Made by a program: the position numbers and the translations under genes
The notes under the pieces: generated by a model
The model's input: only the letters and a program-made list of their open reading frames with translations
Told to the model about the DNA's origin: nothing
Database searches by the model: none
NCBI GenBank assembly: GCA_002946415.1
Contig: NJPS01000070.1
Span: 468,054-532,053, forward strand
Reading direction: 5' to 3'
Origin: Rutstroemia sp. NJR-2017a BVV2
Lineage: Eukaryota > Ascomycota > Leotiomycetes > Helotiales > Rutstroemiaceae
Length of the DNA stretch: 64,000 bases
Part shown: positions 33,172 through 41,120 of the stretch, piece after piece
Position numbering within the stretch: position 1 is the stretch's first letter
How the letters are laid out: the number at the start of each line of letters is the position of its first letter

Positions 33172-35533
33172 TCAGTTGGATAATATAAGATTCCCAAGTC
33201 CAAGTTTCAAAAAGAAAACGCTATCAGATAAGTATCCTATAACTATGATTCCGTTGCAAACAGATGTAGTAAATAGTCGATAATCAGGAGGTAACCAGAG
33301 AATATTTCGCATTCCTACATCTATATTTTCACTTATCCAGGGATTTGAAATAAAATATTGATTGAAAGCCGAGGACGCTAGAGCGCTTGTGTGTCCCTCG
33401 AGTATCTGCTGTAGCTCGCCTGTCGCTGTATCCCAGAGCCGGATCGTCTTATCCTCAGAGCCCGATGCAACTATCTTGCTATCTGGAGAAAAGGCGACCG
33501 ACCAAACCGAGTCTGTATGTCCCTCGAGCGTCTGTAGAACAGGACTCCAATTTAATCTTGTTCTTGATATCTTGTAAATCCAATCAGGAATACACTGTTG
33601 AAATATTTTCCGAATAATACTTTCCTCTGGAGCGAAAAAAAGGGCTGAGCAATACAGTTGAAGAGGAGCCTGTTCAATTCCTCCTCGATTATGAAGAACA
33701 AATCGCTTAACGTCATGAACAAGGGCGAAAAGTTCAGGAGCCTTCTCAGCCTTTGATATTGATTAGTAAATATTCTCTAAAGCTACTCTGACTTACCAAG
33801 ATATAAGATTCCAAAGAACTTATTGTAACAATACCCTCTGAAATCTTCCCAATCCAGCTAAGAGCCTCAAGCCAGTGGAGGAGATGTACTTGGAGAAATT
33901 GATAGACTTGGTCATTGTCGTGAAGCTGAGCTCCGCCTTTTTGGAGATGTTGAACCCAGTAGATATATGTATATCTAACCTCTGGAGGAAGATAGTCCTT
34001 TATTCGAATCCCTACATTAGTTACAAGTGTACCAGGAGCCTTTTGTCCACAAATATCTTGTTTAAGAAAGGTAGATATAAGCTTTATACAGTTAAAAGCT
34101 AAGATCTGGTGTATCTGCTTCTTATCTACCTAGAAATTCGAGTCCCTATATCGTTTTTTGTTAAGGAGGAAGTCACGAAATGAAGGATGATATAGATGTA
34201 GTGAGTGATTTTTGTCTTCTGGAATATATAAGATTGCATGAAGATCATCAACTGCTTGATCGATTTCTTGCTTTGCAAGACTCAACAAGTTGTTTAGTGA
34301 GAAAGCAGAAAGAGGTGAGAGCAAGACTACTATACTTCCAAGTATATATTTCAGTGTTTTATACAACTCTTCCTTTTCTTCGTCCTGATAGTCCGAGGAA
34401 ATAGAATTTTTAAGGACAGTAATATATATCTCATCGAGATGCTTCTCTGGAGGTATAATAGTACCGCTACTACCTTTCAGAATTGTATCCAGTCGCTTAG
34501 GTGCGAATAGTTTCCCTTCAGAGATGAATCGATAAGCTGTTGCAGCCTAAATGAAAAGGCCACTAGCATTTAGGACTAGTATTTTGAGAATCTGTTCGCC
34601 TGGCCATCTATCCTCAAGAGTCCGTTCTTGCCTAATTTTACTCAGCCTGTCTTCGAGAAAAACATATATATCATGATCAATAATCGACGGTGATATATTA
34701 TGAAGTACAAAGTCGCAATGTTCAGCTTGTGGTATCTGGTATATACTATATCGGATTGGAATTTCAGGTCTGCTTGTTAGAAAGACTCGAAGTTGTATCG
34801 TCTTTAGTTCTCGAGCTGTAGCCAGAAGTTGTAAAATCATCTGAATATCATTTTCATTATCGCACTTGTCAAGAGTATCTATAATAAGTATGTATGAGGA
34901 TAGAGATAAGCTTCTATTCAACCTTGATAATGGACGAAGGATGAGCTGATGCTACTGGTCGCGGAAGGACTGGCTCGCAATATCACTCCGCTCTGTGATA
35001 GCATCGCTGATATAATGTTGGAGAGATGGAATATTGTCTGTAAGCTGTACAGCGAGACTCGTGAAGAATTTGCTAGTATGACCAATATCTCCACCGCCTC
35101 TCGAAAAGAAGAAACTGGCTCCAAGACGCTTCTGATCGAAATATGTGCGGGCAATGGTACGCGCAATTGTTGACTTTCCTGTGCTAGCCAAGCTATTTAG
35201 CTAGAAGATGTACCGCTCATCTTGCCCATCGGCCTACTCATATATCTCTTGTAGTAGGTCGACTCGGGTGTCAGGGAGGTAGGTGGGCTCATGTTGGCTG
35301 TTGTACGAATTGAACGGCGCATTCGTTGCAACTGGTAGGCGGCTGAGTAGATTTTCTTGATCTAGAGACTATCAGTTTCTTGTAGTACTTTATATGAGGA
35401 TCTAAGGAAAGCCGACTGATATATATATATATATCTTGAAGAATATACTAGATTGGTAATTTATTGTTCCAGGATTATTACCAACTTGTATACCGTGGTT
35501 ATTACTTCCAGGGAAGTAGGTTCGATAGTCCAT
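33172..35533 (-). pseudogene. NLR 1: motif-NACHT-WD40 STAND protein with five Trp-to-stop codons
   Basis: Exons 35533-35449, 35361-33797 and 33750-33172 join in phase to 742 codons. Residues 9-24 (GSNNHGIQVGNNPGTI) form an amyloid-type signalling motif shared with the neighbouring hydrolase. NACHT follows: Walker A at residues 85-92 (SLASTGKS, two Gly now Ser) and Walker B-like LIIDTLDKCD. A winged-helix/linker region with HPSFRDFLLN is typical of fungal NACHT-WD proteins. At the C-terminus there is one WD40 unit (LEGHTDSVWSVAFSPDSKIV, then SEDKTIRLWD), the start of a second, and a cap. Five in-frame stops, all TAG where this family has Trp, lie at 35234, 35201, 34952, 34547 and 34130. Each equals CCA to CTA on the plus strand, a RIP change. 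STAND proteins of this kind sense ligands and trigger cell death or incompatibility; this copy should be dead. Confidence 0.85.
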
Positions 35534-35852
35534 TGTCGGTATTTCTGATTTGGTGTTGTAATAATAGACTTGTATGCTTGCTATATATTCATCAAAAACT
35601 TCTGAAGAGATAGAATAATAAGATGCCAAATGATGTCCTCAGCTACAGCCTTGTGAGTTTTCCGATATAAGCACCTAAATTAAATATAGCAACTCCAAAC
35701 AATTCAGCCTGATTGTTATAAATTAAAGTTATTTATCAATTGCAAGAAAGTGATAGAACAGATAAAATATCTAGAGTTTATATTAAAAACGATCTCGAAA
35801 TACAAATTATAATCCTTCAACTTCTATATGATTATCGTATATAAGTAACTAT

Positions 35853-37168
35853 TTATTTTCCCCAAGTTATCGATCCAGAATTGTTCCCTACTTGCATACC
35901 AGAATTGTTGCTACCAGAGAAAAACACACCCATAGCTGGTGGGGTAAGACTCTGGAACCTTGTTGCCCCAGGCTCCAAATTGTTTCGACTATCCTCATAT
36001 GCCTTAGTGCCTTGCCTGGCACTAATACAAAGATCAGCAATTACCCCAGAAAGCTTTCTCCAATTTCCGTCCTTGGGGTCAGAAAATTTATTAAGCTCAT
36101 AGTGGTCGAGTGGTTGACTGTAGCTTTCACAGCCATCCAAGTTCGCCGAATCTTTATCAACAATAAAATCCTATTAATGGTAAAATCAATATACCTGTTC
36201 AATATTAATGGTATTCTATACAGACCTTGTAATTGTCCCCGAACATTTTTGATACCTTCGAGCTTTTCTGTTCAAAATAACAATGTACTGTGATACCATT
36301 TTTGCGAGTTGCGATCGAAAAATCTTTGACTATGTCCAACACCATCTCATTGTCAATTTTCAATGCAGCTAATGAGGTGGGTTCTCCCGCCGCACCGGCC
36401 TGGATGATCCTTGTCAAAAGTTCACCTGAGGTAATTTTATCGGTACCATTATGCGGAGTTCCAAGTAATATAACTCCAATTGTGGCATCGAGTATTTTCG
36501 ACATTTGCGGTTTGACCAGACCCTTGAATTTCTATAATCAGTGACAAGTAAGGTTTAGAACTCATATATAAAATAAAATACCTTTTCAATAACCAGACTA
36601 CCAAAGCAATGACCAATGAAAATTAGTCGCCGTGAAGGGCAATCCTGAAAACTGTTAGTAGTAGCCCTTACTAAAACAGGTTCAGCGTCGGGCACGCTTA
36701 TCTAATCTTACCCTTTGTTGTCGCTCAAGCTCACGACTCAAATCATTCGCGATATGAACAAGGCGAAGTTTGATAGCATCATCGCCGTACCAGTTGCTAT
36801 CATAATTGAAGGTCATTATTCGGGCATTCGTAACAAGTGCTGGAAGCATCGTTGGATCGCTGAGCCAATTGATACGCTTCTCCTCCTGAATAGGTGCTTT
36901 GGTCCCGGTCGTGGGTAAGAGCATCATTAAATTGCTGTACCAATTGATATTCTTCGGCTCTGCGCGTTCCTGTTGCTTGACTGCTTTGGTCCAGGTCGTC
37001 GATGGTGTAGCCCCAAGTCCATGAACAGCCACTATACTATGTAATGGTCAATAGTTAAAGAGCAAGGCACACTGATATATACTCAATATCAGGGCTCTCG
37101 CAATCGACAAGTACCTTAAGTCCCAAATCCCGAGAATCAATCTGCCTAGGCATCTTCAAAGTTTCCAT
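35853..37168 (-). CDS. SesB-type alpha/beta hydrolase with C-terminal amyloid-type motif (cassette 1)
   Basis: Five exons (37168-37083, 37036-36712, 36644-36582, 36531-36226, 36170-35853) join in phase to 365 residues without a stop; all introns are GT-AG (46-67 bp). Features are VHGLGA (oxyanion region, about 33-38), the nucleophile elbow GHCFGS (148-153), LLGTPHNGT (180-188) and a candidate catalytic His in LDHYELNKF (His283). The elbow has Cys150 where many family members have Ser. Residues 346-361 (GSNNSGMQVGNNSGSI) repeat the N-terminal motif of NLR 1, whose start is 319 bp downstream on the same strand. In described fungal pairs such a hydrolase is the effector activated by the adjacent NLR; by analogy it would be a lipase or esterase acting in cell death. 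It is the only cassette NLR/effector gene without breaks. Confidence 0.82.
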
Positions 37169-37332
37169 TTTTTTCGCTTTTTCCTGTGCTTGGTCGCCTT
37201 TGGTTTAGGATGCGTAACTAGCAAAATATAGTGCGAGATTTAATACGATGAGCAACTACAAAGAAACTGGCATATCTGAGGAGAAGAGCAGATTTTATGC
37301 CCCGAAAAATTTGTCGCAGAAGGCTGTGTTGA

Positions 37333-38178
37333 GGCTGTATCCTACGAGGCGAGTGGGAATATGTGCAAAGATACCGGGAGGAGATCAACGAAACCCGTCA
37401 TTCTGAGCACAGCGCCTCCACTACAAATGACGAGGACAACGAAGACTCACGACCTGCAAAACGGCGAAAATCTCCCTCGATATGCACTAACAATGCATTA
37501 ACGTTACCCCACAAGCATAGCCCAAAACGTCGCCTCAGACCCCGTCACAATATTACCCTGCTCTCAACTACGCAATTTGAGCTAGACGAGGAACAGTCCC
37601 AGAGCGATTGCGAGCATCAGCCAACACCTATGAGCAATAATTATCATTGTCCTTTACCAACCTCGCGAACTCCTTCATGTATAGGAGAACCGGCATCATT
37701 TGCAGAATATCGAGAATGGCCTTTCTAAGGGTTTTTAAAACGTACCGGGATCGGGAACGATACAACATACAATCTCGAATTTCAGATGCAATATATTCCC
37801 GAATATCTTCATCTTCCCGTCCTTTCCGAAGCACTAACCAATGGTGCTAATAAAACAATACCTGTAAAAACTTCAACCCCTCGCAAGGCTGTTGTACCTT
37901 CTATGCAAAATGCAAGGACTTCAAACACTTGCAGCGTCGTTATACCTTCCATACTGAAAACAAAGACTTCAAACACTTGCAACGTCGTTATACAATCCAA
38001 AGTACAGCCAGCAATATTGCGAACCAAAAGAAGTCGTATTAGATGGACATCAAACGAGAATAAGACAATACTTAGAATGAAAAAGCACGGTTGCTCTTGG
38101 GAGGAGATTCACCACGCTCTTCTATATCGGACTTTGGGGGCAATCCAAGTACAATACTCAACGAAACTCAAGAAGTGA
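37333..38178 (+). pseudogene. Truncated paralogue of the chromodomain gene with Myb/SANT-like end (cassette 2)
   Basis: The plus frame begins after a TGA at 37330-37332 and aligns with the chromodomain gene: RPAKRRKSP, then SPKRRLRPRH, then FAEYREWPF. A TAA at 37726-37728 replaces the Gln after WPF (CAA to TAA, RIP-type). The same frame continues through GFLKRTGIGN and IPEYLHLPVLSEAL, then an internal repeat (TSNTC-[SN]-VVI twice), and ends with a Myb/SANT-like domain at about 38020-38175 (RIRWTSNENKTILRMKKHG, then YSTKLKK). There is no chromodomain here; the two paralogues share a body but have different C-termini. The upstream exons are missing. Confidence 0.7.
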
Positions 38179-38501
38179 TTATACTAAAAACTTCCATTAT
38201 AACCGACGCCCACACGAGGAACTCCGGGCATGATTCCTCTATACAAACTGGGCTGACGCCATTAATGTATTGTCATAGACCTTCTCTGCAGCGCTACAGG
38301 TTGATGTCTTTCATTATCCATTGATATTATACAAAAGCTCATTCTACCTACTACCGATTGGCAACCTTCATCCTGATTCTTATAGCATTTATTAAAATAT
38401 TTATTATACTGTACAATCATGTTAGTATTCTTCCAATGCTCTAAATCAACTTCGATGTTATACTCACCTTGATCATTAGATGCTTTTCGATTCTATATCA
38501 T
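38179..38501. other. Intergenic between the cassette 2 nuclear gene and NLR 2
   Basis: Convergent 3' ends; no gene seen. Confidence 0.6.
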
Positions 38502-40719
38502 TCATTTCCGTTTAAAAAATCGTTGAAATATCTTTTCGACCTTATTTTTAATACTCTTGTGTTGATTTTTATGCAAGTTGTCTAGGTTTTGGACAACTTT
38601 AAGTGTCCGTTTGTGATCAGGGCCCCATGCTTTCTCATATCCTTTCAGTGCTCGCTGGTACATCTTCTCGGCCTCGGCCATCTTCCCTTGCTTGCAGTAA
38701 AGTATGCCTAGATTGTTGACTGTGTCAAGTGTTGAGGTATGCTCAGGACCCCATACTTTTTCATAACCTTTGAGTACTCGCTGGTACATCTCTTCAGCCT
38801 CGACCATCTTCCCTTGATCCATATAAAGATTGCCGACATTGTTGACTATATCAAGTGTTGAGGTATGCTCAGGACCCCATGCTTTCTCCTTTCCTTTCAG
38901 TGCTCGCTGGTATATCTCTTCAGCCTTAGCTATCTTGCCTTGATCCTTGTAAAGATTGCCGACATTGTTGACTATATTGAGTGTTGAGGTATGCTCAGGA
39001 CCCAATGCTTTTTCATAACCTTTAAGTGCTCGCTGGTACATCTCTTCAGCCTCAGCTATCTTCCCTTGATTCAAGTAAAGATTGCCGAGATTGTTGACTG
39101 TATCAAGTGTTGAGATATGCTCAGGACCCCATGCTTTCTCCTTTCCTTTCAGTGCTCGCTGGTACATCTCCTCTGCTTCTGTTATTCTACCTATGGTGCT
39201 ATTTAACCATCCTAAATTATGTAGATCTTCAGCATCAATATTATTCCAATCAATTGAATTTCTCAATCGTCTATAGTCCAATCGACGTATATGCTGTTCT
39301 AAACGACGATTTCTTACCCAGAAATCTGCTTCATTGTCCCACATTACATTTTCAGCGATAGCAGATATGGCTATACAACAAAGATCAGCATCAAATTTGT
39401 GATTTAAATGCTCAAAAGTCCAATCATGAACACATATGTGAAGGCTATACGGTCCTTGTTGTGTTTCAGCCTCAACTAGTGAATACTCATATAGCTTGCT
39501 CATCGCCTTGTTGAATCTTAGTTTGCTCTTCACCACGTTCGATAGCCACTCAGGCCCAGACTTGGCTGCCTTCTGGAAAAGCTCATACCACAGATCTGTA
39601 TTGCTGAAATATGCTATGAGCCGTAGTATCTGCGCCGCTTCTGGATCTTGGGCCTCGATTTGTTTGAAGGATAGATTCCAAGTCGAATAGAGAGTCCTGT
39701 TTTCATATTCTTGAGATTCATCACAATACTGAACTAATTCATCCCAGCTTTCTTCATACATCTGCAAATAGTATCCAAAACTGTTTGCTGTTTGGCTGAT
39801 ATATGCTCCAGCTGTAGCTAATGCGAGTGGTAGTCCGTCGAGACGAACCGCAAGACTTTGCGCTTCATGATCTATCCACAGTAGATCCATCAGTTAGTTA
39901 ATTTTAACTATTGTACTCAATACTTTCTTACCTTCACTAGTATCTTTGCCTGAATAATTCGCCAAAATAGCTAGGCTCTGATGAAGATCTTGAAACTTGC
40001 CAAGTGGTAATCGTTTACCAAAATTGATTCGATTTGATCGTATTGTGATTAATATCGATCCATATGCTTGGAAGGGAAAGAATTGCCGAATATCATATCC
40101 AGTGGAGCTTTTGTTTCCGGGAAGTCGAGGATCATCGTAATTATCATAAATCACCAGCCAGTCATGATTCTCAGAGTTAGAAAGCCACTGTCTGATATTC
40201 CGAATTGCTAGGTCTTCATCTAGCTGATTTGTAACAGATCCACTTTCTCGTTCATTTGAAATTCGTAACCATAGCTCGACGATTCCCGCCTTAAGAGTAT
40301 TTTCGTTCTTGGCATTCAACCAGATAATTGATGAATATCTAGCTTGATGTTGTTTGGCAAAATGAAGGCTGAGTTGTATCTTGCCAATTCCCCCGAGACC
40401 ATAGATTACCACGATATTCTGTCTTTGAGAATCTGGTGAAAGCCATTCACTTAGTTGGATCAATTCTATCTACCGTCCGATAAAGATATCATCGTCGATC
40501 AGTGGGGCGCCGTTAAGGCTCAGACCAAGCTTGTAATTTGGAGGAAGTGGTGCTATAGATTAAATGGAAGAATTAGTAATTGTTATATATATGGCTCGGA
40601 AAGGGAAAAAGGCAAAACATACCAGGTAGAGCATGGTGGTGAAATTCTATTGTTCCAGAACTATAACCAACTTGCATACCTTGGTTATTGTTTCCCGATA
40701 AGTGGATTTGGTGAGCCAT
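38502..40719 (-). pseudogene. NLR 2: motif-NB-ARC-TPR STAND protein with one nonsense codon
   Basis: Exons 40719-40623, 40552-39932 and 39871-38502 join in phase to 695 codons; introns are 70 and 60 bp. Residues 9-24 (GNNNQGMQVGYSSGTI) carry the same motif as NLR 1, at the same residue positions. NB-ARC follows: the P-loop reads GLGGIGKIQLS, where Ile replaces the expected Thr (ACA to ATA), then LVIYDNYDDP (Walker B region) and GLPLALATAGAYI. The C-terminus has five 42-residue TPRs (39191-38562) with the core EAEEMYQRALKG and GPEHTSTL. A TAG at 40470-40472 interrupts the FIGR-x-IEL start of NB-ARC; CAG to TAG fits RIP. ATG 40719 is chosen because it gives the same spacing to the motif as in NLR 1. 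Confidence 0.85.
38562..39191 (-). repeat. Five near-identical 126-bp TPR units
   Basis: Five tandem units of 42 codons within NLR 2, each G-[KR]-x-x-EAE-x-MYQR-x-LKG-x-EK-x-x-GP-[ED]-H-x-x-TL. High similarity between units suggests recent expansion or gene conversion, as known for repeat domains of fungal NLRs. Confidence 0.9.
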
Positions 40720-41000
40720 TATCTCAGATATATTTGTGAGCTTGTGATAAATGATATCTTCTTTCTTCTTGGAAGAGTGAAACTTCAGCGAAGATTTCTG
40801 AAGGAGATAAATGGTGTTCTCAGCTACAGCCTTATGAGAGTTAAATATAGTAGCCAATAGCAATTCAGTATGATTACTACTTGATTTATATTAGTTACAA
40901 AGGAAGGATATAACCAGAGATATTGAAAAAACTGTATATTAAAAATGACTTCAACATATAAGTTGAATCTTCTAGCTTCTATCCAATACAAAGTAGCTAT

Positions 41001-41120
41001 TTATTTTCCCCAATTTATCGAACCAGAACTATTTCCTACTTGTAAACCAGAATTGTTACTGCCAGAGAAGACCACACTACCTGGTGTGAGACTCTGGGTC
41101 CTTGCTGCCTCAGTCCCCAT
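41001..41120 (-). pseudogene. Orphan C-terminal tail of a SesB-type hydrolase (cassette 2)
   Basis: A 39-codon frame ending in the same motif and terminus as the intact hydrolase: RTQSLTPGSVVFSGSNNSGL, then QVGNSSGSINWGK and stop. It lies 281 bp upstream of NLR 2 on the same strand, the position of SesB relative to NLR 1, and the sequence between it and NLR 2 resembles that between SesB and NLR 1. The catalytic exons are gone. An ATG at 41120 could by chance allow a free 39-residue motif peptide. Confidence 0.75.

What the first reader, a model, noticed from the sequence alone, without database searches (positions are those of the whole stretch)
33172..41120. Matched amyloid-type motif in two NLRs and their adjacent SesB hydrolases
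The sequence shows four copies of one motif: G9-I24 in NLR 1, G9-I24 in NLR 2, residues 346-361 of the intact hydrolase, and the orphan tail at 41001-41120. Consensus G-[SN]-N-N-x-G-[ILM]-Q-V-G-x-x-x-G-[ST]-I. The placement (N-terminal on the receptor, C-terminal on the neighbouring effector) is that of fungal NLR/effector pairs with HRAM, sigma or PP motifs. The motif resembles what Pfam calls Ses_B/sigma; which group it belongs to I could not check.
Basis: partly seen in the sequence, partly recalled or inferred. Interest (0 to 1): 0.85.

Follow-up and report, generated by a model that had tools for sequence, protein, structure and literature searches.

The report
Decayed fungal amyloid-signalling receptor cluster
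In this fungus a short prion-like tag is shared by two immune-type receptor genes, one enzyme gene and one gene remnant; it is a known kind of cell-death switch, here mostly broken, but its layout suggests how the matching tags could be passed on together.

Summary
The four motif copies are real, at the stated places, and not chance. They belong to the known PP motif family (core NxGxQxGxN, RHIM-like), not sigma: all four pass Pfam PF17046 'Ses_B', which hits 7 places in the 43.4-Mb genome (Rutstroemia sp. NJR-2017a BVV2), each the tail of a SesB hydrolase (one an orphan tail) or the head of an NLR. So this is a PP-type NLR/SesB cluster: orphan SesB tail, NB-ARC/TPR receptor, SesB, NACHT/WD40 receptor. 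Corrections: only one hydrolase body is present; both receptors carry in-frame TAG stops (one and five), and the NACHT receptor shows RIP-type damage. Each PP module found in this genome is damaged somewhere. Clarireedia jacksonii has annotated SesB and NLR genes with consecutive locus tags and the same motifs. Tail, spacer and head form one homologous DNA block before two unrelated receptor classes, and a metagenomic SesB joins a body 96% identical to a sigma-like-tailed SesB of this genome to a PP tail. One DNA block carrying both motifs may therefore be the unit that moves. Amyloid formation and cell death were not tested. New member of a known kind.

The parts
33172..35533 (-). NLR1: NACHT (NPHP3_N) receptor with about one WD40 repeat; exons 35533-35449, 35361-33797, 33750-33172; PP motif at residues 9-24; five in-frame TAG (35236-35234, 35203-35201, 34954-34952, 34549-34547, 34132-34130)
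   Evidence: C. jacksonii P0188 matches at 75-88% per piece
35462..35509 (-). PP motif, head of NLR1 (GSNNHGIQVGNNPGTI)
   Evidence: PF17046 30.6 bits
35534..35852 (-). spacer between SesB stop and NLR1 start, homologous to the spacer of module 2
35853..37168 (-). SesB hydrolase, 365 aa, exons 37168-37083, 37036-36712, 36644-36582, 36531-36226, 36170-35853; nucleophile elbow GHCFGS; open frame
   Evidence: own gene model P0189 and homologues; fold of homologue P0002 is alpha/beta hydrolase
35868..35915 (-). PP motif, tail of SesB (GSNNSGMQVGNNSGSI)
   Evidence: PF17046 43.6 bits
38502..40719 (-). NLR2: NB-ARC/TPR receptor, exons 40719-40623, 40552-39932, 39871-38502; PP motif at residues 9-24; one in-frame TAG at 40472-40470; P-loop reads GKI where P0067 has GKT
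   Evidence: P0067 of Rutstroemia WRK4, 72%
38555..39184 (-). TPR array, 126-bp units, 75-77% alike
40648..40695 (-). PP motif, head of NLR2 (GNNNQGMQVGYSSGTI)
   Evidence: PF17046 37.3 bits
40720..41000 (-). spacer between orphan tail stop and NLR2 start
41001..41120 (-). orphan SesB tail with PP motif at 41016-41063; no hydrolase body found upstream; 90% identical to the tail of metagenomic SesB P0007
35424..35977 (-). duplicated cassette, copy 1 (SesB tail + spacer + NLR head)
40584..41119 (-). duplicated cassette, copy 2

Best explanation
This is a PP-motif amyloid-signalling cluster of the kind described as PNT1/HELLP/SBP: a ligand-activated NLR would oligomerise, its N-terminal PP segment would form an amyloid nucleus, and this would template the C-terminal PP segment of the SesB hydrolase and switch it on, probably to kill the cell in self/non-self recognition or defence. 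Shown here: motif identity and placement, gene order, homology, hydrolase fold of a homologue, and the state of the genes. Inferred from the family: amyloid formation, templating, enzyme activation, cell death. In this strain the cluster is largely decayed: NLR1 carries RIP-type damage and five stops, NLR2 one stop and a changed P-loop, and the second SesB is reduced to its tail; only SesB is open.
Against: No fibril, seeding or cell-death data. Receptors are not open frames here, so function of this copy is doubtful. NLR1's whole-gene RIP indices are hardly raised (0.92/1.17 against 0.89/1.19 for 28-64 kb), and at nucleotide level its 149 unique changes include 34 transversions and 44 reverse transitions. 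Heads and tails do not match better within a module than between modules (mean 12.6 against 12.5 of 21 residues, four modules here and one of C. jacksonii), unlike the within-cluster grouping reported for sigma in PMC3321046. No HeLo-like (PF17111) protein carries a PF17046 hit, so a pore-forming partner as in P. anserina is not seen; the HeLo family proper was not searched. The last residue of the SesB elbow is Ser here but Gly in all 59 homologues in which the elbow pattern was found. PP-like heads are rare among the listed receptor homologues: 2 of the 120 listed for NLR2 (661 found) and at most 10 of the 120 listed for NLR1 (2766 found) by simple patterns.
Confidence: 0.85

Rival explanations
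1. SesB and NLR1 are one gene. Splicing from a donor inside the SesB motif (codons for Gly-Met-Gln) to the NLR1 exon-2 acceptor gives an all-in-one SesB-NACHT-WD40 protein without a PP core.
For: Gene models of the records join exactly there in P0189 (this locus), P0209, P0258, P0271 and P0226, and P0257 joins nearby. A donor-like GGTATGC or GGTATAC and a CTCTAG acceptor, about 0.55 kb apart, are present in 3 of 3 modules of this genome that have SesB followed by NLR1. All-in-one SesB NLRs exist elsewhere (P0074 by its Pfam list; PMC3321046 passages).
Against: All six are automatic models from three Rutstroemia genomes of one series; P0189 also lacks the stretches around the stops, a sign of forced joining. 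C. jacksonii models keep two genes with complete motifs.
Confidence: 0.1
2. The TAG stops of NLR1 are corrected by A-to-I mRNA editing (UAG read as Trp), so NLR1 is a working receptor in the sexual stage.
For: All five stops are TAG and lie in columns where the relatives have tryptophan (5 of 13 such columns); none of 21 glutamine columns is a stop.
Against: TpG sites in tryptophan codons are not clearly hit more than others (5/13 against 16/54), and the changes outside tryptophan codons show no preference for a following G; RIP acting mostly on one strand explains the pattern. [quoted passage not shown] The NLR1 WD40 domain is reduced to about one repeat.
Confidence: 0.04
3. The stops come from ordinary decay of an unused receptor rather than from RIP.
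For: RIP indices of NLR1 are near the flank; NLR2 shows no TpG bias; the nucleotide comparison of three modules gives NLR1 34 transversions and 44 reverse transitions among 149 unique changes.
Against: NLR1: 27 of 35 changes in unanimous columns are G>A, 21 of them after T, no transversion. A sister SesB on C30 has 68 of 80 unique changes of C>T/G>A type, 46 at CpA/TpG, so RIP acts on this family here.
Confidence: 0.15

Closest known systems
PP-motif system PNT1/HELLP/SBP (Chaetomium globosum) and PNT1/HELLP (Podospora anserina)
   Same: PP core, NLR head and effector tail, neighbouring genes, lipase-like effector (SBP); receptors of NB-ARC or NACHT type with TPR or WD repeats (PMC7885112 passages)
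   Different: No PP-tailed HeLo-like protein found in this genome; two receptor classes beside one SesB; receptors damaged
sesB/STAND and Goodbye-HeLo loci with PP motif (PMC3321046 passages)
   Same: sesB homologue with PP tail near a STAND gene with PP head
   Different: Here in a Rutstroemia; two modules in tandem, one reduced to a tail; no Goodbye-HeLo gene seen with the motif
sigma system HET-eN/SESA/SESB (Nectria haematococca)
   Same: SesB-type effector
   Different: Motif: no PF17106 hit; sigma-like tails and heads occur at other loci of this genome (C23, C51)
RIP-inactivated NWD pseudogenes of P. anserina (PMC1805685 passages)
   Same: NACHT/WD40 family members killed by RIP
   Different: Those are heavily changed by RIP; NLR1 here shows light change, mostly G>A on the coding strand

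Membership tests
PP amyloid signalling motif | Core NxGxQxGxN (as given in a passage of PMC9815663) | tested here: met
   Exact in SesB and NLR1; NLR2 and orphan have S for the last N
PP amyloid signalling motif | Match to Pfam PF17046 over its cut-off (that this model is the PP type is my inference from its hits) | tested here: met
   4 of 4; sigma-like tails 0 of 4 up to E = 10
PP amyloid signalling motif | N-terminal on the NLR, C-terminal on the effector of a neighbouring gene | tested here: met
PP amyloid signalling motif | Forms a prion/amyloid and cross-seeds receptor and effector | not testable with these tools
   experiment needed
sigma motif | Match to NACHT_sigma PF17106 | tested here: not met
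   No match; 0 hits in genome
HET-s / HRAM | Match to a HET-s prion-domain profile in Pfam | tested here: inconclusive
   No match for the four segments; profiles of the other HRAM groups were not at hand
RHIM | Central G-phi-Q-phi-G (PMC7885112 passage; strict form has I or V) | tested here: inconclusive
   G[ILM]QVG in 4 of 4: fits the loose form only partly the strict one; shared with PP, no proof of membership
SesB hydrolase | alpha/beta-hydrolase fold | tested here: met
   On homologue P0002, not on the window protein
SesB hydrolase | Serine nucleophile GxSxG | tested here: not met
   Cys in the elbow; of 66 homologues 30 have Cys, 29 Ser, 7 no match to the pattern used
fungal NLR | NACHT or NB-ARC plus repeat domain | tested here: met
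   Pieces searched apart
fungal NLR | Open reading frame in this genome | tested here: not met
   Five (NLR1) and one (NLR2) in-frame TAG

The most novel reading that the evidence does not exclude
The heritable unit of PP signalling is a DNA cassette of about 550 bp holding effector tail, spacer and receptor head. Because both motifs lie within it, a single recombination can give a new receptor class and a new effector body a matching pair of motifs at once. This would explain the same head on a NACHT/WD40 and an NB-ARC/TPR receptor, the bare tail in front of NLR2, and the SesB P0007 that joins a sigma-type body to a PP tail. A further part, also not excluded: the open SesB at this locus could be driven in trans by a receptor at another.
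Probability: 0.3. Interest if true: 0.65.

Novelty: new member of a known kind. Interest (0 to 1): 0.42.

Why it matters
PP motifs resemble the mammalian RHIM and can partly cross-seed with it (PMC7885112 abstract). A genome in which PP modules survive in pieces, beside sigma-like modules of the same layout, lets one test how receptor and effector motifs stay matched while the domains around them change, and whether RIP prunes such modules.

Tried and rejected
Sigma membership was tested and dropped. RNA editing of the TAG stops looked attractive and was tested; the numbers favour RIP. Within-module co-variation of head and tail: the split of last-N versus last-S between the two modules of the window suggested it, but over five modules (four here, one of C. 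jacksonii) there is none. Homology between PP and sigma-like cassettes: 8 of 8 pairs score below the best of 30 shuffles. A SesB body upstream of the orphan tail: none by tblastn with two SesB proteins. The seven literature searches (listings seen) showed no paper on this locus; of papers I saw two of four parts of PMC5485727 and passages of PMC3321046, PMC9815663, PMC11087585, PMC12258605, PMC7885112 and PMC1805685. The absence rests on that alone. P0007 comes from short metagenomic contigs (4 contigs, longest 1461 bases, 9 members); a chimeric assembly is not excluded, its host is not known, and the tree that places it with Botrytis has support 93/91, under the program's own mark.

Full report
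Observation. Coordinates and residue numbers given in the finding are right. Random sequence of the same dinucleotide make-up never gave the full pattern in 200 tries of 36 kb. PF17046 finds each of the four alone, at 30.6 to 43.6 bits with a cut-off of 23.2, and nothing else up to E = 10.

Where it is. The protein P0189 is the record's own model of this locus in Rutstroemia sp. NJR-2017a BVV2: its last 192 residues match the window at 100%, and the length of its contig, 532053, equals the right end of the window in its contig. The genome is searchable (43.4 Mb, 79 contigs).

Anatomy, in the direction of transcription. Orphan SesB tail (41120-41001); NLR2, NB-ARC/TPR (40719-38502); SesB (37168-35853); NLR1, NACHT/WD40 (35533-33172). 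The 8 introns used have GT-AG ends. A second apparent stop of NLR2 falls in an intron; one TAG remains. NLR1 has five TAG. SesB is open.

Which motif. PMC3321046 (passages) gives the PP motif as a pseudopalindrome around Q, and PMC9815663 (passages) as NxGxQxGxN; PMC5485727 (two of four parts) and PMC7885112 (passages) describe its role with PNT1, HELLP and SBP. SesB and NLR1 fit the core exactly, NLR2 and the orphan but for the last N. PF17106 (sigma) has no hit in the genome, while PF17046 has seven, all over the cut-off: four here, tail and head on contig C47, tail on contig C30. The C30 head, with a stop at codon 4 and a Ser for a core Gly, was seen by tblastn and is not among the seven.

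Other PP modules in the genome. C47: its NLR1 paralogue is open for 627 aa with a PP head; its SesB is interrupted by about 500 bp, its first 96 residues found no match, and its tail has R for the second core G. C30: the SesB tail has E there, the NLR head has a stop, and the NACHT part one TAG. Both NLR paralogues have the same insertion of about 5 kb, with gene-like frames, before the WD40 part; the two loci are 98.3% identical over 5.9 kb there. So none of the PP modules found in this assembly is whole. Whether the open SesB here and the partly open receptor on C47 work together is unknown.

Decay. In NLR1, at 439 columns where all relatives present (three to seven) agree, 27 of 35 changes are G>A, 5 C>T, 3 T>C, no transversion. 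TpG sites: 21 hit of 67; other G sites: 6 of 138. SesB: 3 of 45 and 1 of 71. NLR2: 1 of 42 and 1 of 83. In nucleotide comparison of the three SesB-NLR1 modules, the C30 SesB has 68 of 80 unique changes of RIP type, 46 at CpA/TpG. NLR1 of the window has 149 unique changes: 50 G>A (25 after T), 21 C>T, 23 A>G, 21 T>C, 34 transversions; the other two copies are closer to each other (95% against 89%), so polarity is unsure there. That RIP can favour one strand is recalled, not looked up. PMC1805685 (passages) reports RIP-killed NACHT/WD40 genes in Podospora.

Cassette. Tail, spacer and head of module 2 match those of the three SesB-NLR1 modules at 82% of 445-456 ungapped columns (scores 176-205; best of 30 shuffles 29), those three match each other at 92%, while 8 of 8 PP/sigma-like pairs lie below the best shuffle. 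Past the head the two receptors are of different classes, and before the tail module 2 has no body. P0007, a metagenomic SesB, has a body 96% identical over 149 residues to the C23 SesB of this genome, which ends in a sigma-like tail, but its own tail is PP and 90% identical to the orphan. Four Sclerotinia and Botrytis homologues (P0002-P0005), 67-68% identical in the body, have sigma-like tails. In a tree of 14 SesB bodies P0007 falls with Botrytis (93/91). Body and tail are thus separable. That one event moves tail and head together is inference. The two sigma-like cassettes match each other only around the tail (131 of 166 columns).

The enzyme. AlphaFold2 on P0002 with 24 homologues: pLDDT 70, pTM 0.73, residues 311-352 below 50; fold of lipases and thioesterases. 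The elbow has Cys, as in 30 of the 59 homologues in which the elbow pattern was found. Whether it is a nucleophile is untested.

Verdict. A real, well-placed PP system of a known kind. The public model of this locus fuses SesB and NLR1 through the motif, so it hides the pair, and the receptors are broken in this strain.

Noticed in passing
L011 (contig C23) and L012 (contig C51): Two further SesB-NACHT modules with the same layout but another motif pair: tails with FSTNGGKQFIGGSF and FSSGGGKQFIGGNF, heads with FTSRGGPQLLG and FKSSGGPQFIG, 402 and 396 bp from tail motif to head start. Sigma-like by eye, no Pfam sigma match.
   Followed up: partly
window 35893-35900 and 35361: The codons of the PP core (GGT ATG CAA) hold a splice-donor-like sequence in phase with NLR1 exon 2; public models join SesB and NLR1 there.
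   Followed up: partly
window 1-28000: Very AT-rich (10-24% G+C) with RIP-type indices (1.10/0.53), changing at about 28 kb to about 40% G+C.
   Followed up: no
L011, C23 SesB: The sigma-like tail appears to lie behind an intron right after the hydrolase body, unlike SesB of the window, whose tail shares its exon with the end of the body (read from the sequence, not tested).
   Followed up: no
P0187 and P0188: Two C. jacksonii records of the NLR1 orthologue differ much in the number of WD40 repeats.
   Followed up: no
L020 and L021: The same insertion of about 5 kb with gene-like frames (one resembling a Zn2Cys6 regulator by eye) splits the NLR1 paralogues on C47 and C30.
   Followed up: no
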